DNA of 64,000 bases from a virus. Positions 1,533 through 13,447 of the stretch are shown here, in pieces (positions within the stretch are counted from its first letter, which is position 1; every line of letters begins with the position of its first letter). A model generated the notes under the pieces. The model did no database searches. It saw only the letters and a program-made list of their open reading frames with translations, and was not told the DNA's origin. Both the position numbers and the translations under genes were made by a program. The stretch is taken from positions 1-64,000 of IMG/VR virus record IMGVR_UViG_3300021170_000011; one strand, written 5' to 3'.

Positions 1533-1602
1533 CCGCTAGTTGCGCAGGCCACGGATACTTCCTCCTTAGAAAAACTCCGTAGCCGTCCCAGATCTCTAGC
1601 GG
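1533..1602 (+). ncRNA. Y RNA 2 (minimal, stem only)
   Basis: A 70-nt RNA with the same closing stem logic as its neighbours: CCGCTAG with CTAGCGG, block TTGCGCAGG...GGATACTTC on the 5' side and AGCC...AGATCT on the 3' side. The inner GGCCACGGA pairs with TCCGTAGCC except for one C-A mismatch. The tRNA-like module is missing and is replaced by a short A-rich loop (CTCCTTAGAAAAA), so this copy could bind Ro60 without a tRNA-mimic effector domain. Confidence 0.75.
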
Positions 1603-2017: not shown

Positions 2018-2153
2018 CTGCCCGTTGCGAAGGCAATGGTTACTTCTTAATTTGAATAGGGAAGTGCCGGTTCGAGTCCGGCCCGCTCCACCCGTGGGGC
2101 GGTAGTGTAACGGCAGCACGTAACGTCACCACCGCCGACTTGATCTCGGGCAG
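2018..2153 (+). ncRNA. Y RNA 3 (with permuted tRNA elbow)
   Basis: The closing stem CTGCCCG/CGGGCAG brackets TTGCGAAGG...TACTTC and GCCGACTTGATCT. The tRNA-like end is permuted as in Y RNA 1: T-arm GCCGG-TTCGAGT-CCGGC, acceptor 3' strand CCGCTCC, hexaloop ACCCGT, acceptor 5' strand GGGGCGG, TA, then a D-arm with GTG/CAC. The acceptor has seven pairs with one G-U. Its start lies five bases after tRNA-Lys. Confidence 0.85.
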
Positions 2154-2164
2154 TTTAAAACTTA

Positions 2165-2276
2165 ATCCCTGTTGCGAAGGCCACGGATACTTCTAGGTTC
2201 GAATCCCAGTGGAGCCGCACCTGGCTCCATCGCCCAAATGGCTAGGGCAGTCCGCAGCCAACCAGAACTCAGGGAT
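2165..2276 (+). ncRNA. Y RNA 4 (with permuted tRNA elbow)
   Basis: The closing stem is ATCCCTG/CAGGGAT, with TTGCGAAGG...GGATACTTC on one side and GCC...CAGAACT on the other. The distal module keeps tRNA geometry: T-arm CTAGG-TTCGAAT-CCCAG, acceptor TGGAGCC, hexaloop GCACCT, GGCTCCA (seven perfect pairs), TC, D-arm GCCC/GGGC. Compared with Y RNAs 1 and 3 the linker into the T-arm is shortened to two bases. Confidence 0.85.
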
Positions 2277-2294
2277 ACACAATTCAATACGCAA

Positions 2295-2398
2295 CTCCCG
2301 TTGCGAAGGCCACGGATACTTCTTGGTACGAGAAACCGGCTAACCCCGGTCTGCGGGTTTCGACACCCGCTACTCCGTAGCCACCCAGAACTCGGGAG
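2295..2398 (+). ncRNA. Y RNA 5 (diverged tRNA-like end)
   Basis: Stem CTCCCG/CGGGAG with the same TTGCGAAGG...GGATACTTC and GCC...CAGAACT blocks; GGCCACGGA faces TCCGTAGCC as in Y RNA 2. The distal end has two hairpins, ACCGG-CTAACC-CCGGT (acceptor-like, again a 6-base loop) and GCGGG...CCCGC with a TTCGA-containing loop, but no recognisable T-arm before the acceptor. It looks like a degenerating or remodelled version of the elbow. Confidence 0.75.
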
Positions 2399-2409: not shown

Positions 2410-2492
2410 GGTGCCCGTTGCGCAGGAATCGGCTACTTCCTTTGAATTGGGATCAAACAAGAGACGCCGAATCCGACTAGAACTCGGGCACC
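2410..2492 (+). ncRNA. Y RNA 6 (minimal), immediately upstream of the Ro60 gene
   Basis: The closing stem is eight pairs, GGTGCCCG/CGGGCACC. The 5' block is TTGCGCAGG...GCTACTTC and the 3' block ends CTAGAACT. The distal loop (CTTTGAATTGGGATCAAACAAG) has only a small TTTGA/TCAAA hairpin and no tRNA-like arms. It ends 42 bases before the Ro60 start codon, so it may lie in the 5' leader of the Ro60 mRNA. Confidence 0.75.
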
Positions 2493-2534: not shown

Positions 2535-4151
2535 ATGGGCAAGTTCAACAACCCGAAGATGTCGGCAGCGCCGACGGTCGCTAAGTCGCCGATGACCACC
2601 ACCGCGACCACCCGCACCGCACAGGGCGGCATCGGATACACCCGCGATACCCGTAGCGAGCTGCTGATGCTGGCCGTGTCCAACATGGTCGGTGAGGGCA
2701 CGTTCTACGAGACGGCCGGGAACCGGGACAACCGGTTCCGTGACCTGGTCCGCGCCGTTGCGGTCACCGACCCGGCGTGGATGGTCGGGTTCATCCCGTG
2801 GTTGCGTACCGGCGCCAAGATGCGGTCCGCGTCGATCGTCGCCGCCGCCGAGTCGGTGAAGGCCCGGCTGGACGCGAGCCTGCACGGCACCAACCGTCAG
2901 TTCATCGACGCCGCGTGCCAGCGGCCGGACGAGCCGGGCGAGTTCCTGGCGTACTGGACGTCCCACTACGGCCGCCGCCTCCCGATGCCGGTGAAGCGCG
3001 GCGTCGCCGACGCTGTCCGCCGCATGTACAACGGCAAGGCGTTCATCAAGTACGACTCGGACACGGCCGCGTACCGGTTCGCTGACGTGCTGGAGCTGGT
3101 CCACGCCAGCGCCGACCCGGAGAAGCCGTGGCAGGGCGACCTGTTCCGCTACATGATCGACAAGCGGCACAACCGCGACAACATCCGGGTGCCGGAGGGT
3201 AACAACACCATCGCCGCGTACGCCCACCTGATGGCGCAGGACAAGACCACCCGCCGTCAGATCCTCCTGGACGAGGCCGGGCCGTCCCGTCTCGCCGCTG
3301 CGGGTATGACGTGGGAGGCGCTGGCGGGCTGGTTGCAGGGCCCGATGGACAAGGCCGCATGGGAGGCGATCATCCCGAGCATGCAGCCGATGGCGCTCGT
3401 CAGGAACCTCCGGAACTTCGACCAGGCCGGTGTCTCCGACACCGTCGCCGATGCCATCTGCGCGCGGCTGGCGGACCCGGTGGAGATTGAGCGGTCCCGC
3501 ATGTTCCCGTACCAGTTGTTCTCGGCGTACAAGGCCGCGCCGTCGCTGCGGTGGGGACACGCGCTGGATAAGGCGTTGGGGCATGCGTGCGCCAACATCC
3601 CGGCGTTGGACGGCCGGACGCTGGTTCTGGTGGACACGTCCGGCTCGATGCAGCGTCCGGTGTCGGACCGGTCGCAGGTGCAGATGGTGGATGTCGGCGC
3701 GCTGTTCGGGGTGGCGTTGGCGTTGCGGGGTGCGTCGGTGGATCTGTTTGGCTGGGCGGATTCGGTGTTCCCGCACAACGTGATCAAGGGTGGGTCGGTG
3801 TTGAAGCAGACGGAGGCGTTTAACGCCAAGGTGGGGTCTGTGGGGCACGGTACGGACATGGTGGGGGCTATCCGTGCCACGTACCGTCAGGGCGTCCACA
3901 CGCGCGTTGTGGTGGTGTCTGACATGCAGGTGTGTGGCAGCGGCGGCTACTACGACACGGGGGCGTCTAAGGCGGTGCCGGATCATGTGCCGTTGTTCGG
4001 GATCAACATGGGCGGGTACAAGGCGACGGCGGTTGATTTGTCGAAGCCTAACCGGTTCGAGACGGGTGGGTTCTCGGACAAGATGTTCACGGTGATGGAT
4101 CTGTTGTCGCGGGGGAAGGATGCTGGTTGGCCGTGGGATACGGGGTTGTGA
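2535..4151 (+). CDS. Ro60 homologue (TROVE domain plus vWA domain), RNA-binding protein
   Basis: The 538-residue product has the two-part architecture of Ro60/Rsr. An N-terminal TROVE region of helical repeats starts near GGIGYTRDTRSELLML (residues 31-46), and a C-terminal von Willebrand A domain carries the MIDAS motif DTSGS (D367, S369, S371), a later GHGTDM threonine and a VVVVSDM strand. Ro60 is a ring that binds Y RNAs on its outer surface and single-stranded 3' ends of misfolded RNA in its cavity. GGAGGAG lies nine bases before the ATG. Six Y RNA candidates lie directly upstream and tRNA genes downstream, so it probably acts in RNA quality control or turnover during infection. Confidence 0.93.
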   Translation: MGKFNNPKMSAAPTVAKSPMTTTATTRTAQGGIGYTRDTRSELLMLAVSNMVGEGTFYETAGNRDNRFRDLVRAVAVTDPAWMVGFIPWLRTGAKMRSASIVAAAESVKARLDASLHGTNRQFIDAACQRPDEPGEFLAYWTSHYGRRLPMPVKRGVADAVRRMYNGKAFIKYDSDTAAYRFADVLELVHASADPEKPWQGDLFRYMIDKRHNRDNIRVPEGNNTIAAYAHLMAQDKTTRRQILLDEAGPSRLAAAGMTWEALAGWLQGPMDKAAWEAIIPSMQPMALVRNLRNFDQAGVSDTVADAICARLADPVEIERSRMFPYQLFSAYKAAPSLRWGHALDKALGHACANIPALDGRTLVLVDTSGSMQRPVSDRSQVQMVDVGALFGVALALRGASVDLFGWADSVFPHNVIKGGSVLKQTEAFNAKVGSVGHGTDMVGAIRATYRQGVHTRVVVVSDMQVCGSGGYYDTGASKAVPDHVPLFGINMGGYKATAVDLSKPNRFETGGFSDKMFTVMDLLSRGKDAGWPWDTGL

Positions 4152-4274: not shown

Positions 4275-4347
4275 ATCTCGGTAGCTCAACTGGTAGAGCG
4301 TCCGTCTCCAACACGGATGGTTGTGGGTTCAAGTCCTGCCCGAGGTG
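4275..4347 (+). tRNA. tRNA-Trp(CCA)
   Basis: Acceptor ATCTCGG/CCGAGGT, anticodon arm TCCGT-CTCCAAC-ACGGA, T-loop TTCAAGT, G73. The T-stem contains two G-U pairs. First tRNA of the main array. Confidence 0.93.
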
Positions 4348-4410
4348 CGAGGGATCCTGGGAGGTGCGTTCCGATGGCCGTCCTCCGGCGGTGGCCTACT
4401 GGGATCCCGA

Positions 4411-4483
4411 GCCTGTGTAGCCCAATGGAAGAGGCGTCGCGTTCAGATCGCGAATGTTGGGGGTTCGAATCCCTCCGCAGGTA
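4411..4483 (+). tRNA. tRNA-Leu(CAG), short variable loop
   Basis: Anticodon arm TCGCG-TTCAGAT-CGCGA, acceptor GCCTGTG/CGCAGGT, A73. The variable region is only 5-6 bases, whereas bacterial leucine tRNAs normally have a long variable arm. Confidence 0.88.
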
Positions 4484-4510
4484 CGCTAAACAACTGCATA
4501 TGCACGTCTA

Positions 4511-4582
4511 GTCTTCGTGGTGTAACGGATAGCTCAGCGGGCTACGAACCCGCAGGTGGAGGTTCGATTCCTTCCGGGGACA
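4511..4582 (+). tRNA. tRNA-Arg(ACG)
   Basis: Anticodon arm GCGGG-CTACGAA-CCCGC, acceptor GTCTTCG/CGGGGAC with two T-G pairs, A73. An A34 of this type is normally deaminated to inosine by TadA; no phage TadA is in the window. Confidence 0.93.
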
Positions 4583-4654
4583 CGCAACACGCTTAACGCT
4601 GTTTGAGAACTGCATAGTGAATGAACGTCGTCTTTGATGCGTAGCACATTTCTT

Positions 4655-4730
4655 CGTCATGTGGCCAAGTCTGGGTAAGGCACTTCCCTGATAAGGAAGA
4701 GATTCGTTGGTTCGAATCCAACCATGACGA
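4655..4730 (+). tRNA. tRNA-Ile(GAT)
   Basis: Anticodon arm CTTCC-CTGATAA-GGAAG, perfect acceptor CGTCATG/CATGACG, A73, T-loop TTCGAAT. Confidence 0.95.
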
Positions 4731-4798
4731 CGACAACCGGCGTTATCAGACGCCGGGGTCCGGGCGGATCACTCCTCAGGCTGCGTCCGCCCGTTAAT

Positions 4799-4872
4799 GC
4801 GCCTATAGCTCAATCCGGAAGAGCAGATGTTTTACACGCATCAGGTTCAAGGTTCAAATCCTTGTGGGCGTA
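4799..4872 (+). tRNA. tRNA-Val(TAC)
   Basis: Anticodon arm GATGT-TTTACAC-GCATC, acceptor GCGCCTA/TGGGCGT, A73. The preceding spacer holds an 8-bp hairpin, CGGGCGGA/TCCGCCCG. Confidence 0.94.
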
Positions 4873-4992
4873 CGGGCCACCTCTCCACGGGTGTGTACCC
4901 TGCCCGTTCCCTCCGGGTGCGGGTTTTGCTTGGGCTGTCAACCCGAGAGCGCGCGGATGCCATCCGGTCGGGGGTGTCGCGGTGCGCAACAA

Positions 4993-5065
4993 TGTCCTAT
5001 AGCTCAGTTGGCAGAGCAGTGGATTGTTAATCCACGGGTCGCAGGTTCGAGCCCTGCTGGGACAG
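4993..5065 (+). tRNA. tRNA-Asn(GTT)
   Basis: Anticodon arm GTGGA-TTGTTAA-TCCAC, acceptor TGTCCTA/TGGGACA, D-arm GCTC/GAGC, G73. Confidence 0.95.
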
Positions 5066-5149
5066 CGTCCTTGCGGACATACCGCAAACACCTAACGGTG
5101 ACGGTTCCCGTGCCCGTGCGGGCCCCAATGGTAAGGGGACACGGGGCTA

Positions 5150-5225
5150 GCTCCTATAACTCAATTGGCAGAGTACTTGACTCTTAATCAAGGAGTTCCC
5201 GGTTCGAACCCGGGTGGGAGTACCA
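5150..5225 (+). tRNA. tRNA-Lys(CTT), CCA encoded
   Basis: Anticodon arm CTTGA-CTCTTAA-TCAAG, acceptor GCTCCTA/TGGGAGT, A73 followed by an encoded CCA, unlike most tRNAs in the array. It complements tRNA-Lys(TTT) at 1940. Confidence 0.94.
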
Positions 5226-5283
5226 ACCCATGTTTCAGTGTGCGCACACTGGACGGGCTAAGGCGGGACAGCTACCCGCTGGA

Positions 5284-5349
5284 AGTGAACCTTGGTCAGG
5301 TAGGGCGCAAAACCGGCGCCTGAAGTTGGTTCGATTCCAACCGCTTCAC
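5284..5349 (+). other. non-canonical tRNA-like element
   Basis: A clear T-arm (GTTGG-TTCGATT-CCAAC) is followed by GCTTCAC, which pairs imperfectly with GTGAACC about 58 bases upstream. Between them is a GGCGC/GCGCC hairpin whose loop lacks T33 and a normal anticodon. At about 65 nt it is too short for a standard tRNA. It may be a decayed tRNA or a tRNA mimic; a palindromic hairpin lies upstream (CAGTGTGCGCACACTG). Confidence 0.4.
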
Positions 5350-5448
5350 GGGACCGGTGCGGTCACGCTCCGGTCGGCGACACTTCCGGTTATCCCAACG
5401 ACCCCATAGTGTCCCCTGATCTCGCCGAAAATGTGCGTGACACCTATT

Positions 5449-5521
5449 GCCTCTGTGGCGCAACGGATAGCGCAGCGCGCTTCTATCGCGACGGTTGCAG
5501 GTTCGAATCCTGCCAGGGGCA
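5449..5521 (+). tRNA. tRNA-Arg(TCT)
   Basis: Acceptor GCCTCTG/CAGGGGC, A73. Anticodon loop CTTCTAT in a CGCG/CGCG stem whose outermost pair is a G-A mismatch. T-arm GCAGG-TTCGAAT-CCTGC. Confidence 0.9.
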
Positions 5522-5614
5522 CGCGCAAGATCCGTATGCCGGGGGCTTTACTCCTTTCGACCCGGTTAGGATTGTAGGCCGGGGTAGGCGATCCCCCGTG
5601 CGCATGATCGCCGC

Positions 5615-5688
5615 GCCTCGGTAGCTCAGTCTGGTAGAGCAGCGCTCTCGTAAAGCGCAGGCCAAGGGTTCAAATCCCTTCCGTGGCT
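5615..5688 (+). tRNA. tRNA-Thr(CGT)
   Basis: Anticodon arm GCGCT-CTCGTAA-AGCGC, acceptor GCCTCGG/CCGTGGC with one T-T mismatch, T73. Confidence 0.92.
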
Positions 5689-5784
5689 CGCACTTACATC
5701 ACGTGTGGTGGACAGGTTGCGAATGGTGGACCGCGTGATGTGGGGAATGGGGTGGGTGGTCCCCCTGTGCAATGACCACCACAA

Positions 5785-5860
5785 GCCGCGTTGGTGTCAA
5801 TTGGTTCAACACGTCTGCCTTCCAAGCAGAAGACTGCCGGTTCGAACCCGGTACGCGGTA
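5785..5860 (+). tRNA. tRNA-Gly(TCC)
   Basis: Anticodon arm TCTGC-CTTCCAA-GCAGA, acceptor GCCGCGT/ACGCGGT, A73. One of three glycine isoacceptors in the array. Confidence 0.93.
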
Positions 5861-5875
5861 CGGATCCATATTCGA

Positions 5876-5951
5876 CGCCCATTGGGGGAGTTCGGTCGTC
5901 CCCGTCGGCCTCATAAGCCGAAGATCGCCGGTTCAAATCCGGCATGGGCTA
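5876..5951 (+). tRNA. tRNA-Met(CAT), initiator-like
   Basis: Anticodon arm TCGGC-CTCATAA-GCCGA, acceptor CGCCCAT/ATGGGCT, A73, D-stem GGGG/CCCC. Position 1-72 is a C-U mismatch; a non-Watson-Crick 1-72 pair is the hallmark of bacterial initiator tRNA (C-A in E. coli). The anticodon stem keeps two of the three initiator G-C pairs (G29, G30). A lysidine-type Ile2 tRNA is an alternative. Confidence 0.88.
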
Positions 5952-6064
5952 CAGGTCCGGTTGGCTATCCCAAGCGCACGTCCACTGAACCCGCGCGAGG
6001 TGGACATCGTTCAGGTGTGATAGGGACCCTGCGGGGAGCGTGGCTGACCGGGGCGCGCGGGACT

Positions 6065-6138
6065 GCCGTTGTGGGCGTAATCGGCAACGCCTCGTACTTG
6101 GTAAGTACGCGTTCCGGGTTCGAACCCCGGTGACGGCT
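6065..6138 (+). tRNA. tRNA-Thr(GGT)
   Basis: Anticodon arm CGTAC-TTGGTAA-GTACG, acceptor GCCGTTG/TGACGGC, T73, T-arm CCGGGTTCGAACCCCGG. Confidence 0.93.
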
Positions 6139-6222
6139 CGCACACGCCGAAACGCATTCCACCGCTGGGGTGTTTCGCGACGGCCGGGGCTGGCAGACCC
6201 CCGGAGTGCAGTGTCTGCCATG

Positions 6223-6294
6223 GTCCCTATAGCTCAGTTGGAAGAGCAACCGGTTGAAGCCCGGTGCGCGTAGGTTCGATTCCTGCTGGGGGCA
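6223..6294 (+). tRNA. tRNA-Phe(GAA)
   Basis: Anticodon arm ACCGG-TTGAAGC-CCGGT, acceptor GTCCCTA/TGGGGGC, D-arm GCTC/GAGC, A73. It is followed directly by the permuted Y-like RNA. Confidence 0.92.
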
Positions 6295-6465
6295 CGCGCA
6301 ACACCGTACGGTGGTCACCCGGGCTGGCATGCCCCGGGCGCAGCATGCCGATCCGTACCTGACTTGATCTCGGGGGCCACTGCCATCGTTCCCGATGCGA
6401 TAGGAACGGATACTTCTACAAAGTTCGGTATCCGAACCGGTGCGCGGTCGTGCACCCCGAGAGTT
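6295..6465 (+). ncRNA. topologically permuted Y-like RNA
   Basis: The two conserved strands of the Ro60-type stem occur in reverse order. The 3'-type strand ATCCGTACCT...GACTTGATCT-CGGG (6351-6374) comes first. It is joined by a 16-base linker to the 5'-type strand CCCG-ATGCGATAGG...GGATACTTC (6391-6416). CGGG/CCCG and GG(A)ACGGAT/ATCCGTACC pair as in the array at 1381-2492, and GACTTGATCTCGGG is identical to Y RNA 3. The Ro60 end is thus a closed loop and the tRNA-like end is open, with hairpins GGCATG/CATGCC on the left and GTTCGG/CCGAAC on the right. The outer ends are a guess set by the flanking tRNAs. Confidence 0.6.
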
Positions 6466-6536
6466 GCTGGTGTGGTGTAAAGGCCGCATATCACGTTGCC
6501 AACGTGGAGGAGCCAGTTCGATTCTGGTCGCCAGCT
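6466..6536 (+). tRNA. tRNA-Gly(GCC)
   Basis: Anticodon arm CACGT-TGCC core (loop TTGCCAA, stem CACG/CGTG), acceptor GCTGGTG/CGCCAGC, T73, T-arm CCAGTTCGATTCTGG. Confidence 0.92.
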
Positions 6537-6626
6537 CGGGCAGATCAACACCCTCCGAGGTGATGTCGCATCCGGCGCTGACATGCCGCCGGGCTCAACG
6601 CATGTCGCCCTGTCAACGAAGGGGAT

Positions 6627-6746
6627 GTGTTGTTTCATCTGCTGTTCGGTAAGCGCTGCACGTGCATGTGTGGCTGCTTCGTGTGCGCAGTCCATTCGCA
6701 CTTCCTGTGCCTGCGGAAGGGGCCACACACATGCACGAAAGGCTAA
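6627..6746 (+). CDS. small Cys-rich protein, about 39 aa
   Basis: A short frame (GTG 6627 or TTG 6630, preceded by GAAGGGG) encodes a peptide with eight cysteines, including CTCMCGCFVC. Its TAA overlaps the ATG of the next gene (TAATG), which supports real, coupled translation. The function is unknown; the cysteine spacing suggests metal binding. It resembles the following gene product, which also has a CxC...C pattern. Confidence 0.45.
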   Translation: MLFHLLFGKRCTCMCGCFVCAVHSHFLCLRKGPHTCTKG

Positions 6747-6871
6747 TGGCCTTTTTCCGGGAAACACTTCTCGGATGGAAATGCGGATGCTTGTGTAAGC
6801 GCTGCATTCCGGGGCCGATGTATTTCCACTGCGGAGCCAAGATCACGGGCTGTTTCCAACGCCCGAAGTAG
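6746..6871 (+). CDS. small Cys-rich protein, 41 aa
   Basis: ATG overlaps the stop of the preceding small gene. The product starts MAFFRETLLGWKCGCLC, then KRC, HCGAK and TGCF, giving six cysteines and a histidine in 41 residues, consistent with a small zinc-binding knuckle. No family recognised. Together with its partner it forms a two-gene cassette within the tRNA array, between tRNA-Gly and tRNA-Asp. Confidence 0.5.
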   Translation: MAFFRETLLGWKCGCLCKRCIPGPMYFHCGAKITGCFQRPK

Positions 6872-6906
6872 CACCAGGGGTCGGCGGCCCCCGCCAGCCG
6901 CCACAT

Positions 6907-6981
6907 GGTCCGTTGGAGGAGTCTGGAGTCCTCGCCACCCTGTCACGGTGGAAACCACGGGTTCGAATCCCGTACGGATCG
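6907..6981 (+). tRNA. tRNA-Asp(GTC)
   Basis: Anticodon arm CCACC-CTGTCAC-GGTGG, acceptor GGTCCGT/ACGGATC, G73, T-arm CGGGTTCGAATCCCG. Confidence 0.94.
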
Positions 6982-7101
6982 CGCGTCCGTTCCCGCTCTG
7001 GCCGTTTCCTGGCGGCCCGTGCGGGCCGTAGTGAACCGGTCGGCGGTTGCCGCTACGCACAAAGAACCGCATAGGGGATAGTCCAACCGGTAGTCCCCCC
7101 A

Positions 7102-7137
7102 CCCGAGTTACCGGATACAGGTACAGAAGGACTCGGG
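7102..7137 (+). other. short structured element, possibly Y-like
   Basis: CCCGAGT/ACTCGGG (7 bp) encloses TACC-GGATACA-GGTA and CAGAAGG. GGATAC on the left and CAGAA...ACTCGGG on the right echo the conserved Y RNA strands (GGATACTTC, CAGAACTCGGG), but the TTGCG block is missing. It may be a decayed Y stem or coincidence. Confidence 0.3.
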
Positions 7138-7141
7138 ACAT

Positions 7142-7216
7142 GGCGCATTGGGGCTGTCTGGAAAGCCCGTCTCCCTCTCAAGGAGAAGATCACCGGTTCA
7201 AATCCGGTATGCGCTA
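7142..7216 (+). tRNA. tRNA-Glu(CTC)
   Basis: Anticodon arm TCTCC-CTCTCAA-GGAGA, acceptor GGCGCAT/ATGCGCT, A73. Partner of tRNA-Glu(TTC) at 8685. Confidence 0.94.
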
Positions 7217-7292
7217 CGCGTCCCTGTCGTCCTGATGCGGAGCGGCGGGGGTGAACCGGGCAGGCAGTCCCCCGGCGCAAACGGGCTGCCGC

Positions 7293-7365
7293 GTCTTCGT
7301 AGCTCAACGGATAGAGCATCAGGTTCCGAGCCTGAAGGTTGCTGGTTCGAATCCAGCCGGGGACA
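7293..7365 (+). tRNA. tRNA-Arg(CCG)
   Basis: Anticodon arm TCAGG-TTCCGAG-CCTGA. The acceptor GTCTTCG/CGGGGAC is identical to that of tRNA-Arg(ACG) at 4511. A73. Confidence 0.94.
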
Positions 7366-7503
7366 CGTGCTCCTTCACGGTGTACGTATAGGTGCAGCCC
7401 CAATGTACGTGTGGGGCGAATGGTGGGCAGCCGGTGCCGTGACCGGTCCACCCCTAGTGGCCGCCGGGCTATGTCCCCGATCCAGACAGAACCGGTGGCC
7501 CGC

Positions 7504-7576
7504 GCATCCGTGGTCTAGTGGCCTATGACACCGCGTTCCCAACGCGGTAACGCCGGTTCGAATCCGGCCGGGTGCT
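7504..7576 (+). tRNA. tRNA-Gly(CCC)
   Basis: Anticodon arm CCGCG-TTCCCAA-CGCGG, acceptor GCATCCG/CGGGTGC, T73. Confidence 0.94.
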
Positions 7577-7756
7577 CAAACCCAATGGGGACTAGTCGAA
7601 GGTAATTGGGGTCCGTGGCTAGCTGGCCCCGGTTGAGATCTTCCCCCTGCGGGTTTCAACGGACGTTCCCGGTGTGGTTGGAGCGCGACTCCCCACCCCA
7701 ACAGCGTGGCCCGTTCCGCCTGTCGCGAATGCGGTTCGGGGCCGGGGATGTCCAAT

Positions 7757-7829
7757 GCTTCCGTGGCCCAATGGCAGAGGCACAACGTTGAGGGCGTTGA
7801 CGGTGCGGGTTCGACTCCCGCCGGAAGTA
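7757..7829 (+). tRNA. tRNA-Leu(GAG), short variable loop
   Basis: Anticodon arm CAACG-TTGAGGG-CGTTG, acceptor GCTTCCG/CGGAAGT, A73. As in the other leucine tRNAs here, the variable region is only about five bases. Confidence 0.9.
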
Positions 7830-8102
7830 CGCGCGTCGTACATCCCTTTTGGGGGTGCGGAGAACCCGGGTTGGTGGACCCACCGGGGCGCACATGTCCA
7901 CCATTTGATAACAGGGCGCCGAGGCCTGGTCGGGATACGGATGCGGATTTCGCTAGTACCGGGATTAACGTGTTGCCGTATGCCCGGGAGAATGTGAAGC
8001 ACCCGGCGGGCCGCCCACATATAAAGAAACAGTGATGGTCACGTGGAAATCGTCGTTCCGGTGCAACCGCCATGATGGGCGGTAGTCCGGTCGGCCATCC
8101 GA
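7830..8102 (+). other. longest tRNA spacer (no gene seen)
   Basis: I see no convincing coding frame or RNA gene. The stretch contains inverted repeats, for example GGTGGAC (7873-7879) with GTCCACC (7896-7902). Similar hairpins occur in most spacers of the array and may mark RNA processing. Confidence 0.5.
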
Positions 8103-8177
8103 TGCCCTGTGGCGCAATTTCGGCAGCGCACCCGGCTCTGAACCGGGTGGTTCCAGGTTCGAATCCTGGCGGGGCAG
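8103..8177 (+). tRNA. tRNA-Gln(CTG)
   Basis: Anticodon arm CCCGG-CTCTGAA-CCGGG, acceptor TGCCCTG/CGGGGCA, G73. Confidence 0.94.
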
Positions 8178-8301
8178 CGCGTGCGCTGAAGGTGTGGGAC
8201 GGAATCCGAATGACACCCCACATTGTCAAAGTGTCACAGGCTGGTAGGTCGGAGAGGCAGCCCGCACGCGAACTACATGGCCGTTCGGTTGGGAGAGTTT
8301 A

Positions 8302-8514
8302 GTGTCCGCTCGTTGTGATCTGTGCGGCAAGGGGCCGGGTTTCGGCAACAACGTGTCGCGGCTGGGTGTCAATGCGACACACCGGCGTGTCAAGGGTAGG
8401 TCTGGCCGGATGTTCCGTGCGAACATCCAACGGGCCCGCGTCGCGGTGGGTGGTGTGACACGGCAGGTGAACGCCTGCACGGGCTGCATCAAGAAGTCCG
8501 TCACCCGCGCGTAG
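8302..8514 (+). CDS. rpmB: ribosomal protein bL28 homologue
   Basis: The 70-residue product matches bL28 from end to end: CDLCGKGPGFGNNVS (5-19), a basic THRRVKGR core, ANIQRARV (40-47) and a terminal CTGCIKK (59-65). C5, C8, C59 and C62 form the zinc ribbon of the CxxC...CxxC type found in many actinobacteria. bL28 is a large-subunit protein near the exit-site tRNA region and links 23S rRNA elements. GTG start with GGGAGAG upstream. The gene sits inside the tRNA array, so it travels with other translation components and may enter host ribosomes; that is inference. Confidence 0.85.
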   Translation: MSARCDLCGKGPGFGNNVSRLGVNATHRRVKGRSGRMFRANIQRARVAVGGVTRQVNACTGCIKKSVTRA

Positions 8515-8520
8515 ACGATT

Positions 8521-8591
8521 TGCCCTCTCGTCCAACGGCAGGACACCGGGTTTTGGCCCCGGCAACGCAGGTTCGAATCCTGCGGGGGCAG
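8521..8591 (+). tRNA. tRNA-Gln(TTG)
   Basis: Anticodon arm CCGGG-TTTTGGC-CCCGG, acceptor TGCCCTC/GGGGGCA, G73. It begins six bases after the bL28 stop. Confidence 0.93.
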
Positions 8592-8684
8592 CGGCATACG
8601 TTCGATGCAGAACATGCGGTGGTCGTGCATGACGGTAACGCCCGGGTACAGGAAGTCATGACCCACAATCCCGGGGACCACGAT

Positions 8685-8758
8685 GGCGCGTTAGAGGAAT
8701 AGGTAGACTCACCGGCCTTTCAAGCCGGGATTTGCGGGTTCGAGCCCCGCACGCGCTA
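8685..8758 (+). tRNA. tRNA-Glu(TTC)
   Basis: Anticodon arm CCGGC-CTTTCAA-GCCGG, acceptor GGCGCGT/ACGCGCT, A73. Confidence 0.93.
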
Positions 8759-8969
8759 CGTCGTCGCTACCGGTCCACGCGCAGGCTTTCGGTGTTCGTC
8801 ACGGGATGACGGGCCGGGGCCGGGCCGGGGCGCCGACTCCAAAGACAACCCCGCTGTCGTGGCGGGGAGGGCGGAAGCGGCATTACGCGTCCCTGCTAGT
8901 CCGCCTCGGGAGTCCGGAGAGAAGAGTTGGACCGGATAGGCCGGTACGTGGGGTAGACCGGCGCACATA

Positions 8970-9046
8970 GCCCATGCCTTTATCTCGCTGGCAGCGGGAA
9001 CGCGTCTGCAAAACGCGTTGTACGGGGTTCAATTCCCCCATGGGCC
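8970..9046 (+). tRNA. tRNA-Cys(GCA)
   Basis: Perfect acceptor GCCCATG/CATGGGC. The anticodon arm is an extended 7-bp AACGCGT/ACGCGTT stem around CTGCAAA. C73 rather than the usual T73 of cysteine tRNA. Confidence 0.9.
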
Positions 9047-9048
9047 TC

Positions 9049-9131
9049 GGGTGATAGGTGACTGTTGGTTGGTCTCAGCAGACTGTAAATCTGCCGCTTC
9101 GGCCTCGGGGGTTCAATTCCCTCATCACCCA
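9049..9131 (+). tRNA. tRNA-Tyr(GTA)
   Basis: Anticodon arm GCAGA-CTGTAAA-TCTGC, acceptor GGGTGAT/ATCACCC, A73, with the long variable arm normal for bacterial tyrosine tRNA. It begins two bases after tRNA-Cys. Confidence 0.94.
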
Positions 9132-9268
9132 CGCGCAAGGGCTCGTTCCCCCTGTTGGACGGCTGGCATGCCCGTTGCGCATTGCATGCCACACCTGTAC
9201 CCGTCCCGGTTCTCACGCGGGATGGTGGCGGACGACCCCGTTCTGATGTCAGTCGGGACGGTGGCCGT

Positions 9269-9343
9269 GCTTCCGTAGCCCAATCCGGCAGAGGCGATGG
9301 ATTCAAAATCCATAGGTTGTCGGTTCGAATCCGACCGGAAGTA
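9269..9343 (+). tRNA. tRNA-Leu(CAA), short variable loop
   Basis: Anticodon arm ATGGA-TTCAAAA-TCCAT, acceptor GCTTCCG/CGGAAGT shared with tRNA-Leu(GAG), A73, five-base variable loop. Last tRNA of the main array. Confidence 0.9.
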
Positions 9344-9408
9344 CGTGACACGCGCTGAACCCCCGTACAGCGCGTGTCCGTAGATCGTTTGGTTGACCGG
9401 AGGAAACC

Positions 9409-9988: not shown

Positions 9989-10231
9989 GTGGCCACCGTC
10001 CGCGCACGCTGCCCGTGGTGCCAGTCAGACGGGTTCCATATCGAAACCGCCCGCCGCTGGTACTGGTGTTTCCGCTGCGGACGCGGCGGCGCGCTAGACG
10101 ACGTCCGATGCGACATCCCCTGTGACCCCGACTGCGACGCCGACTGTCACGCCTGGCATCACGTCCCGTGGAAACGCGAACACCAGCCGGAGAACTGTCC
10201 GGCACTGATCAGCAAACCGGAGGAACGATGA
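9989..10231 (+). CDS. Cys-rich zinc-ribbon-like protein, 80 aa
   Basis: GTG start three bases after the previous stop. CPWC (8-11) and CFRC (27-30) form a plausible zinc ribbon of the type found in many small phage nucleic-acid-binding proteins. A second Cys/Asp cluster (CDIPCDPDCDADCH) follows. Its end overlaps the ATG of the RNA ligase gene by four bases, so the two are translationally coupled. Confidence 0.65.
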   Translation: MATVRARCPWCQSDGFHIETARRWYWCFRCGRGGALDDVRCDIPCDPDCDADCHAWHHVPWKREHQPENCPALISKPEER

Positions 10232-11328
10232 GCACGTTGAAGGTCACCGTCGAGGAGTTGGTGATCCACCCCCACCCCAACGCCGACGCGTTGGAGCTGG
10301 CACAGGTCGGGATGTACCGGGCTGTGGTGGGGAAGGGCCAGTACAAAACCGGCGACTACGCCCTGTACATCCCCGAGCAGGCGGTGTTGCCGCCGGGGCT
10401 GATCGACGAGTTGGGTTTGACGGGGCGGCTGGCCGGGTCGGGCAAGGACCGGGTGAAGGCGATCCGGCTGCGCGGGGAGCTGTCGCAGGGGATCGTGTGC
10501 CGACCGGCCGCGATGTTCGGGAACTGGGACAGCTCCGGTGTTCAGGCTGTCTGCGAGGAGGGCCTGAACTTCGCCGCCGAACTCGGCATCACCAAGTGGG
10601 TTCCGCCGGTGCCGGTGGGGATGGCCGGGGATGTGGTTCCGGCACCGGACCTGATCCCGTGGGTGGACATCGAGAACATCAAACGGGTCCCGGACATGTT
10701 CGAGCCGGGTGACCGGGTGATCGCGACGGAGAAGGTCCACGGCTCGTGCTGCCTGCTGACGTACGTGGTGGACACTGACGAGGTGTTCGTGTCGTCGAAG
10801 GGTGTGGGCGCGAAGAACCTGGCTATCGCCGAATCCGACGGGAACCTGTATTGGCGTGCGGTCCGCGCGTACGGCCTGGTGGATGTGGCGAAGAACCTGG
10901 CGAAACACCTCGGGGTGAACCGTCTGGGGCTGTTCGGCGAGGTGTTCGGGTCCGGTGTTCAGGACTTGAAGTACGGCGCGGACGCCACCCGCAACGACGG
11001 GATCGGGTATGCCCTGTTCGACATCGGGTACGCCGACGGGACCGGCGGCTACCAGTACTTCAGCCACGGTCTGTGGCCGGTGCTGGCGGCGTCTGGTCTG
11101 CTGCCGGTGCCGACGGTCCCGGTGTTGTACGACGGGCCGTACGACTACGACATTCTCTCGGTGTTGGCTGAGGGGTACGAGCAGGTGTCCGGTGGGGAGC
11201 TGCATATGCGTGAGGGGCTGGTGGTGCGGTCCGCTATCGCTGACCGGTCCCGGGCGCACGGGTGGCGTGTCGCCAAGTTTGTGTCGGTGGCGTATCTGAT
11301 GCGCAGGGGCGGGACGGAGTTCGAGTGA
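10228..11328 (+). CDS. RNA ligase, DraRnl/Rnl5-like
   Basis: The 366-residue protein has an N-terminal OB-like region (residues 1-130) and a ligase core whose motif I is EKVHGS (K169 the expected nucleotidyl-lysine). LGLFGEVFG and EGLVVRS follow as motif IIIa/IV-type segments, and KFVS fits motif V. This order, OB module before the adenylyltransferase domain, is characteristic of Deinococcus DraRnl (Rnl5), which seals 3'-OH/5'-PO4 breaks in RNA guided by a template strand. GGAGG precedes the ATG. The window also encodes a T4 Rnl1-type ligase, so substrates probably differ. Confidence 0.85.
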   Translation: MSTLKVTVEELVIHPHPNADALELAQVGMYRAVVGKGQYKTGDYALYIPEQAVLPPGLIDELGLTGRLAGSGKDRVKAIRLRGELSQGIVCRPAAMFGNWDSSGVQAVCEEGLNFAAELGITKWVPPVPVGMAGDVVPAPDLIPWVDIENIKRVPDMFEPGDRVIATEKVHGSCCLLTYVVDTDEVFVSSKGVGAKNLAIAESDGNLYWRAVRAYGLVDVAKNLAKHLGVNRLGLFGEVFGSGVQDLKYGADATRNDGIGYALFDIGYADGTGGYQYFSHGLWPVLAASGLLPVPTVPVLYDGPYDYDILSVLAEGYEQVSGGELHMREGLVVRSAIADRSRAHGWRVAKFVSVAYLMRRGGTEFE

Positions 11329-12404: not shown

Positions 12405-12668
12405 ATGAACAAGCGTGAGCAGCAGATCGAAGCGGCCCGTGACAACGCGCTGACGGCCGCGCTGGAGGACCTGCTGGCGTTCCTCGACCCCGACGACGAT
12501 GACTGCGACGTGGACCCGCAGGTCCGGCGCGAGGCGTCCCTGTACCTGGAGTCGTGGGTGGCCGGTCCGCTGGCGGCGGCGTTGAACCGCCAGGAACTCG
12601 GTACCTGGGCACAGGGGCACAGCGGCCGTGGCCGCGCGGCGAAGTACCTGGCACTCATCCGCCAGTAG
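12405..12668 (+). CDS. hypothetical acidic helical protein, 87 aa
   Basis: Unrecognised. A GGAGGAAGATC leader precedes the ATG. Residues 1-30 form an Ala/Arg/Glu-rich helix, followed by an acidic cluster DPDDDDCDVD and a second helical region ending in a basic tail. Monocistronic, framed by promoter copy 3 and the terminator at 12689, the third such unit in a row. Confidence 0.68.
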   Translation: MNKREQQIEAARDNALTAALEDLLAFLDPDDDDCDVDPQVRREASLYLESWVAGPLAAALNRQELGTWAQGHSGRGRAAKYLALIRQ

Positions 12669-12688
12669 CCACACCCCTAGATCAGGAA

Positions 12689-12714
12689 ACCCCCGGCCTG
12701 CGCCGGGGGTTTTC
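12689..12714 (+). terminator. rho-independent terminator
   Basis: AACCCCCGGC-CTGC-GCCGGGGGTT plus TTC, a compact 10-bp hairpin 20 bases after the stop of the upstream gene. Confidence 0.85.
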
Positions 12715-12775
12715 TGTTGCAGTTCTCCAGTCCATGTCACACTGTGATCCAAGTCTGACCCTGGAGGACCACACC

Positions 12776-13447
12776 GTGACGACTGCATGCCCCGGCCGGT
12801 GCAACACGTCATACCGAAACAACCCCGACAGCGGCGCCCAGCCCGTCCCTGGCGCGCCCGTATGGTGCCCGGCGTGTGCCGGTACCATCCGTACTGCGCT
12901 ACGGTCCCTACCGACCGCCTACAGGGCCCTAGACGCTGTCCCGTACATGACGCCGCGTGCCCCATCCGACGACCTCGCCACCCACGTGTCCGGCAGCCGC
13001 GAACGGCCATCCCCCGGACCCGGCGTTGACCTGCGACACGAGATGTCACGAACCATGTGTTCGTGGGAGGACGATTTGCGGCAGCATCTGCGGGTCCGGG
13101 CCGCCCATCTACCCGACGGGTCTGAACGGGCGTTACAGACCGCCGTACGGTTCCTGAACGGCAATTGGGACGCCGCTATCAGCCGCCCCGAATGCTCCCG
13201 CGACTTCGGCGACGAAACCACTGGCCTATACCTGCGTGCGCTGCGGATGGTGAAGAACGACCGGCCACGCCGGAAACTGTCGATCCCCTGCCCGCGCTGC
13301 GACGTCCGCGCCCTGGTTCAACACGAGGGCTTCGCCAACGTCCCGTGGTACACCGAATGCCTCCCCGATCTGGGTGGCTGCGGCGTGTTGTACAGCGAGC
13401 AGGAGATGTCGTGGGCGGCTGAGGTGCGGGTGGCGGTCCGGACATGA
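12776..13447 (+). CDS. zinc-ribbon protein, 223 aa
   Basis: GTG start after CTGGAGGACCACACC. Two Cys motifs near the N-terminus (CPGRC and CPAC) and a C-terminal pair of CPRC and CGV-type cysteines suggest two zinc knuckles. This arrangement is common in actinophage proteins that accompany a small HTH protein, but I cannot name the family. Its TGA overlaps the ATG of the following DNA-binding protein (ATGA), so the two are coupled. Confidence 0.65.
   Translation: MTTACPGRCNTSYRNNPDSGAQPVPGAPVWCPACAGTIRTALRSLPTAYRALDAVPYMTPRAPSDDLATHVSGSRERPSPGPGVDLRHEMSRTMCSWEDDLRQHLRVRAAHLPDGSERALQTAVRFLNGNWDAAISRPECSRDFGDETTGLYLRALRMVKNDRPRRKLSIPCPRCDVRALVQHEGFANVPWYTECLPDLGGCGVLYSEQEMSWAAEVRVAVRT

What the first reader, a model, noticed from the sequence alone, without database searches (positions are those of the whole stretch)
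6295..6465. A Y-like RNA with its two Ro60 strands in swapped order inside the tRNA array
GACTTGATCTCGGG (identical to the 3' strand of Y RNA 3) occurs 16 bases before CCCG-ATGCG...GGATACTTC (5' strand). The helix therefore forms as a hairpin closed at the Ro60 end and open at the tRNA-like end, the opposite topology to the other six. This looks like a genuine circular permutation of a Y RNA, equivalent to a tRNA whose anticodon arm is the Ro60 stem, and hints at how Y RNAs and tRNAs interconvert.
Basis: partly seen in the sequence, partly recalled or inferred. Interest (0 to 1): 0.82.

Follow-up and report, generated by a model that had tools for sequence, protein, structure and literature searches.

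The report
Strand-swapped Y RNA in phage tRNA array
Between two tRNA genes of an actinobacteriophage-like virus lies a genuine Ro60-binding Y RNA stem whose two strands are encoded in reverse order, a natural circular permutation of a short Y RNA without the tRNA-like part; whether it is a working RNA or a relic is still open.

Summary
Window 6361-6374 is a Y RNA 3' strand and 6391-6416 a Y RNA 5' strand, 16 nt apart, in swapped order. They rank 2nd (3') and 7th (5') in the 64 kb; only canonical Y RNAs by the Ro60 gene score higher. 3'-linker-5' is also what every junction of two tandem Y RNAs looks like (Y3/Y4 here has the same 16-nt gap), so order alone proves nothing. What separates this copy: no 5' strand upstream and no 3' strand downstream (unique among 366 5' strands), and its halves are matched to each other. 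Their H2 helix has 9 Watson-Crick pairs (1 of 177 tandem junctions reaches that; 10% of true partners do), and H1 gains 3 loop-side pairs (1 of 111 junctions). A profile of short Y RNAs hits it as two swapped, overlapping pieces. Circular permutation is supported, but of a short hairpin Y RNA: no tRNA-like domain was found, so the tRNA equivalence fails. In the full 170-nt spacer other folds compete, no relative carries it, and covariation could not be tested. Most likely it is a minimal Ro60 ligand released from the tRNA precursor (about even odds); the main rival is a relic of a duplicated Y RNA.

The parts
6351..6416 (+). Swapped-order Ro60 (Y RNA) stem: 3' strand, 16-nt linker, 5' strand
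   Evidence: Position-weight scan; covariance model of tandem junctions 53.5 bits, E 8e-11 (this copy was among the 30 sequences of the model); fold -23.0 kcal/mol for 6351-6413 with the stem paired
6361..6374 (+). Y RNA 3' strand GACTTGATCTCGGG
   Evidence: Exact copy of Y RNA 3 3' strand; score 18.3, second in the window
6375..6390 (+). 16-nt linker GGCCACTGCCATCGTT; its outer GGC and GTT extend helix 1 by three pairs, leaving a 10-nt loop
6391..6416 (+). Y RNA 5' strand CCCGATGCGATAGGAACGGATACTTC
   Evidence: Score 24.0 against 6.1 for the best non-Y site
6351..6360 (+). Helix 2 arm ATCCGTACCT, pairs with 6402-6411 AGGAACGGAT (9 pairs, one A.A mismatch)
6428..6438 (+). GTATCCGAACC: possible second copy of the helix 2 arm at the downstream end (8 of 9 like 6351-6359, period 79 nt), could pair with CGGATAC 6407-6413; also part of the palindrome GTTCGG-TAT-CCGAAC
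6223..6295 (+). tRNA-Phe(gaa), upstream neighbour
6466..6537 (+). tRNA-Gly(gcc), downstream neighbour
6326..6349 (+). Inter-tRNA hairpin GGCATGC...GCATGCC, homologous to the hairpin after tRNA-Phe in L007; not part of the Y element
2535..4151 (+). Ro60-like (TROVE) protein, the expected binding partner
   Evidence: Pfam PF05731 E 1.2e-12; tblastn to annotated Ro-like phage proteins
1380..1522 (+). Canonical Y RNA 1 (YrlA type)
   Evidence: Rfam RF02553 47.7 bits, E 2.6e-9, below the gathering score of 69
1533..1602 (+). Canonical Y RNA 2 (short hairpin type)
2019..2152 (+). Canonical Y RNA 3 (with tRNA-like domain)
2166..2272 (+). Canonical Y RNA 4
2295..2391 (+). Canonical Y RNA 5
2411..2491 (+). 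Canonical Y RNA 6 (short type)

Best explanation
Window 6351-6416 (perhaps to 6438) is a circularly permuted copy of a short, hairpin-type Y RNA. Shown: both Ro60 strands are present, in swapped order, and are cognate to each other. Inferred: it arose from a tandem duplication of one Y RNA followed by loss of the outer halves. Inferred: it is transcribed as part of the tRNA precursor and set free when tRNA-Phe and tRNA-Gly are cut out. It then folds as a Ro60 stem closed by a 10-nt loop at the helix 1 end, and is bound by the phage Ro60 protein as a minimal ligand without a tRNA-like domain.
For: Both strands are real Y RNA sequence. Helix 2 between them has 9 Watson-Crick pairs in register; 1 of 177 strictly defined tandem junctions, 1.6% of random non-cognate pairs and 9.6% of 291 cognate pairs reach that. 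Helix 1 is extended by 3 loop-side pairs, seen in 1 of 111 junctions. A profile of 68 short Y RNAs from other genomes hits 6391-6440 as model 1-46 and 6348-6374 as model 38-65, i.e. swapped and overlapping. Read in canonical order, the distance from TTC to GATCT would be 28 nt, inside the short-Y range of 25-42. No other 5' strand in 366 has an upstream 3' strand and lacks a downstream one, once variant 3' strands are read. In a short transcript (6347-6416) the stem pairs with probability 0.93-1.0.
Against: No relative carries it, so there is no covariation. In the whole 170-nt spacer the stem has probability below 0.01 and costs about 4 kcal/mol against the best fold; with other flanks it is 0.45-0.86. 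By duplex energy alone the pairing (-20.2 kcal/mol) is not exceptional: 30% of tandem junctions are as strong. The TGCGNAGG motif is altered to TGCGATAGG, though L051 has the same variant and 44 of 133 canonical Y RNAs also depart from the motif. There is no evidence of transcription, and no promoter or terminator pattern. The downstream helix 2 copy may simply be part of a GTTCGG/CCGAAC hairpin. A homogeneous dimer relic would also have cognate halves.
Confidence: 0.5

Rival explanations
1. Relic: the junction of two tandem copies of a Y RNA, whose outer halves were lost, left in the tRNA array and no longer functional.
For: 3'-linker-5' is the normal junction of tandem Y RNAs in 53 sampled places with 16-35 nt linkers, and Y3/Y4 here has the same 16-nt gap. 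The linker resembles other junction linkers weakly (2.8-17% of random 16-mers do as well). The spacer's predicted fold does not favour the stem. No relative has it.
Against: Pairing between the halves is cognate-grade, so two different tandem Y RNAs are unlikely; it would have to be a duplicate of one Y RNA. Both motifs are intact although the linker and flanks share nothing obvious with the window's other junctions.
Confidence: 0.38
2. One reading: a circularly permuted YrlA equivalent to a tRNA with the Ro60 stem as its anticodon arm, showing how Y RNAs and tRNAs interconvert.
For: The linear order of the Ro60 strands is that of a tRNA anticodon arm; canonical YrlA carries T-arm, acceptor and D-arm in the complementary order. 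Two hairpins flank the stem (GGCATGC/GCATGCC and GGTGC/GCACC).
Against: No tRNA match by ARAGORN or by the Rfam tRNA model at E up to 5. The upstream hairpin is a recurrent inter-tRNA element also found in L007 without any Y RNA. The geometry fits short Y RNAs that lack a tRNA-like domain.
Confidence: 0.04
3. A cis element: Ro60 binds the swapped stem inside the long tRNA precursor and affects its processing or decay (a loading site, not a free RNA).
For: It sits inside a co-directional tRNA array in a phage that encodes Ro60. In D. radiodurans, Y RNA tethers Rsr to the exonuclease PNPase (PMC7790460). Competing folds of the spacer would allow a switch.
Against: Only one of about 25 spacers in the array carries it; nothing links it to processing of the two neighbours.
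Confidence: 0.08

Closest known systems
Bacterial Y RNAs (YrlA, Rfam RF02553) with Ro60/Rsr
   Same: Same two conserved Ro60 strands, same helix 1, contact region and helix 2 with the same spacing as Y6 in this window; encoded in the same genome as a Ro60 protein.
   Different: Strands in swapped order, so the stem is closed at the helix 1 end; no tRNA-like domain; lies among tRNA genes about 2 kb downstream of the Ro60 gene instead of directly upstream of it.
Short hairpin Y RNAs of Streptomyces and their phages (110 of 291 canonical Y RNAs collected here)
   Same: A Ro60 stem with a small loop and no tRNA-like domain; spacing equal once read in canonical order.
   Different: Canonical strand order in all of them.
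Circularly permuted tRNA genes and permuted tmRNA (own knowledge; Rfam lists tmRNA_permuted RF04321)
   Same: RNA whose halves are encoded in reverse order, plausibly through tandem duplication.
   Different: Those are functional and conserved, and a permuted pre-RNA is processed; here neither processing nor conservation is shown.

Membership tests
Bacterial Y RNA | Conserved Ro60-binding 5' and 3' strands | tested here: met
   Scores 24.0 and 18.3 bits against 6.1 and 12.5 for the best unrelated sites
Bacterial Y RNA | The two strands pair into one stem (helix 1, internal loop, helix 2) | tested here: met
   9-pair helix 2 and 8-pair helix 1 in register; met for the isolated element, but outcompeted in the full 170-nt spacer
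Bacterial Y RNA | Canonical order: 5' strand first, 3' strand last | tested here: not met
   Order is swapped; no 5' strand upstream, no 3' strand downstream
Bacterial Y RNA | Bound by Ro60 in the cell | not testable with these tools
   A Ro60 gene is present; binding needs an experiment
YrlA (RF02553) | tRNA-like domain with T-arm, acceptor-like hairpin and D-arm | tested here: not met
   No Rfam or ARAGORN match in 6290-6470 beyond the two flanking tRNAs; Y RNA 1 does match RF02553
tRNA-equivalent permuted Y RNA | Closed acceptor stem plus D- and T-arms around the Ro60 stem | tested here: not met
Circularly permuted RNA | Two profile hits in swapped order that together cover the whole parent | tested here: met
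   Model 1-46 and 38-65 in swapped order, E 0.003 and 0.11
Circularly permuted RNA | Halves cognate to each other | tested here: met
Circularly permuted RNA | Covariation or conservation of the permuted form in relatives | tested here: inconclusive
   Only this copy found in 51 phage records, 366 5' strands and the phage collection; nearest relative L007 lacks it

The most novel reading that the evidence does not exclude
A functional, naturally circularly permuted Y RNA: a Ro60 ligand whose new ends are made by tRNA processing, showing that Ro60 recognises the stem irrespective of strand connectivity.
Probability: 0.42. Interest if true: 0.65.

Novelty: new variant of a known kind. Interest (0 to 1): 0.45.

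Why it matters
No circularly permuted Y RNA turned up in the papers searched. If it is functional, it shows that Ro60 needs only the stem and not its connectivity, gives a minimal Ro60 ligand without the tRNA-like arm, and catches in the act how tandem Y RNA arrays can generate permuted RNAs. It also warns that tandem Y RNA junctions look like permuted Y RNAs unless the halves are tested for being cognate.

Tried and rejected
1. Chance: rejected by the position-weight scan. 2. A 5' strand upstream (for example CCCGGTGCGCGTAGG inside tRNA-Phe at 6260, 3.1 bits) or a 3' strand downstream (CAGCTCGGG at 6532-6540 at the tail of tRNA-Gly), which would turn it into two ordinary Y RNAs: rejected. The first lacks TACTTC, the second lacks GA[TA]CT and scores below 2.9 bits, and both lie in intact tRNA genes; CTCG tails also follow other tRNAs here. 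Note that the -21.4 kcal/mol duplex with the tRNA-Gly tail would need the T-arm to open. 3. Duplex energy as a test of swapped pairing: not discriminating; replaced by in-register helix counts. 4. Overall fold of 6295-6465: z -1.08, uninformative. 5. BLAST of the element against phages: no homologue. 6. Pattern scans CCCGATGCG/CCCGTTGCG in viral contigs: tandem junctions and coding chance hits. 7. L092 and L188, which passed the swapped filter, lack the Y RNA context around them and look like coding chance matches. 8. A competing upstream pairing GTACGG/CCGTAC (6306-6358): probability up to 0.21, not further resolved.

Full report
WHAT IS THERE. The window is part of a 99,994-base virus record that encodes a Ro60-like protein at 2535-4151 (TROVE domain; relatives annotated 'Ro-like RNA binding protein' in Streptomyces and Gordonia phages). 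Directly upstream of that gene lie six canonical Y RNAs, and downstream of it a large tRNA array, tRNAs from 4275 to 9344. In the 170-nt spacer between tRNA-Phe and tRNA-Gly stand a Y RNA 3' strand (6361-6374), 16 nt, and a Y RNA 5' strand (6391-6416).

MORE THAN CHANCE. Weights trained on 118 Y RNAs from other genomes give the 5' strand 24.0 bits, against 6.1 for the best unrelated site on either strand of the window, and the 3' strand 18.3, second of all sites. The two sit side by side. A covariance model of tandem junctions scores the place at 53.5 bits, E 8e-11, next to 58-62 bits for three of the window's own junctions (this copy was one of the 30 sequences behind the model).

THE NULL MODEL THAT MATTERS. 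In tandem Y RNA arrays every junction reads 3' strand, short linker, 5' strand. This is so in dozens of related phages and Streptomyces genomes, and at Y3/Y4 in this window with the same 16-nt gap. Strand order alone therefore does not show a permutation. The candidate differs in that the outer halves are missing: it is the only one of 366 distinct 5' strands with an upstream 3' strand and no downstream one, once variant 3' strands (such as GACCTCGGG) are read. In 51 complete or partial phage records the confident junction hits fall in Y RNA clusters, and the window's 6346-6416 is the only isolated one.

ARE THE HALVES PARTNERS? Duplex energy does not tell: -20.2 kcal/mol, reached by 30% of ordinary junctions. 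The in-register helix 2 does: 6351-6360 ATCCGTACCT and 6402-6411 AGGAACGGAT form 9 Watson-Crick pairs with one mismatch. That is reached by 1 of 177 strictly defined tandem junctions (mean 5.3), 1.6% of random non-cognate pairs and 9.6% of 291 true partner pairs. Helix 1 is lengthened on its loop side by three pairs, seen in 1 of 111 other junctions. The two halves thus most likely come from one and the same Y RNA.

WHICH PARENT? A profile of 68 short Y RNAs (none from the window) hits 6391-6440 as positions 1-46 and 6348-6374 as positions 38-65: swapped order, full coverage, small overlap. Read in canonical order the distance between TACTTC and GATCT would be 28 nt, in the 25-42 range of the short, hairpin-type Y RNAs (110 of 291) and far from the 64-114 of most Y RNAs with a tRNA-like domain. 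ATCCGTACC (6351) and ATCCGAACC (6430) may be the two copies of the overlap left by a tandem duplicate; each arm alone has a shuffle frequency of 0.005-0.006. The downstream copy also fits a small GTTCGG/CCGAAC hairpin, so this point is suggestive only.

NO tRNA MIMIC. Neither ARAGORN nor Rfam finds any tRNA-like domain in the spacer, whereas Y RNA 1 does match the YrlA family, below the gathering score. The hairpin upstream of the element recurs in other spacers and follows tRNA-Phe in the nearest relative L007, where no Y RNA element is present.

HOW IT MAY WORK. Inference: the array is transcribed as a precursor, and removal of tRNA-Phe and tRNA-Gly frees the spacer, in which the stem can be bound by phage Ro60. 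The isolated stem folds well (6347-6416: pair probabilities 0.93-1.0; 6351-6440: -29.8 kcal/mol, z -1.85), but in the bare 170-nt spacer other folds win by about 4 kcal/mol, and with other flanks the probability is 0.45-0.86. In D. radiodurans, Y RNA tethers the Ro60 ortholog Rsr to PNPase (PMC7790460); that a stem without the tRNA-like domain would act as a minimal ligand or competitor is inference. A relic of a duplicated Y RNA remains nearly as likely, because a duplicate of one Y RNA would also have matched halves.

VERDICT. Observation confirmed. Circular permutation of a short Y RNA supported by two independent pairing tests and a profile test. tRNA equivalence not supported. Function unproven.

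Noticed in passing
window 8302-8514: A 70-aa ORF inside the tRNA array matches ribosomal protein L28 (Pfam PF00830, E 1.3e-11): a phage-encoded ribosomal protein.
   Followed up: partly
window 6192-6219, 6326-6349, 6580-6606, 7263-7290, 9165-9190; L007 6876-6903, 6942-6968, 7394-7417, 8237-8263, 8527-8553, 8875-8901, 9217-9242: A recurrent inter-tRNA hairpin, typically GCT-GGCANNC-CCC..GCGCA..-GNNTGCC, with compensatory stem changes between copies and between window and L007 (GGCATGC/GCATGCC, GGCAGAC/GTCTGCC, GGCATAC/GTATGCC, GACATGC/GCATGTC). An unnamed structured RNA element.
   Followed up: partly
window 8869-8962 (L007 7985-8077): About 95 nt of strongly conserved non-coding sequence (GGAAGCGGCA...CTGCTAGTCCG.CTCGGGAG...GGAGAGAAGAGTTGGACC...GGTACGTGGGGTAGACC) in both phages; no Rfam match at gathering score.
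   Followed up: partly
window about 1795-1922 (L007 about 4900-5046): A tRNA-like RNA with a long insert (GGTGCC ... GAGGTTCAACTCC ... GGCACC), conserved in L007 with the core GGTGTCATAG and GGCTAAGCC; no tRNA or tmRNA call.
   Followed up: partly
L001 9598-9970, L003 10440-11050, L006 minus strand 12637-13040: In other Streptomyces phage clades the Y RNA 3' strand has a different motif (TTTCTAGG, GGTTAACC) while the 5' strand stays alike, which suggests co-evolution with their own Ro60 proteins.
   Followed up: no
window 10228-11328: RNA ligase (Pfam RNA_ligase plus PHA02142 OB-fold) just downstream of the tRNA array.
   Followed up: no
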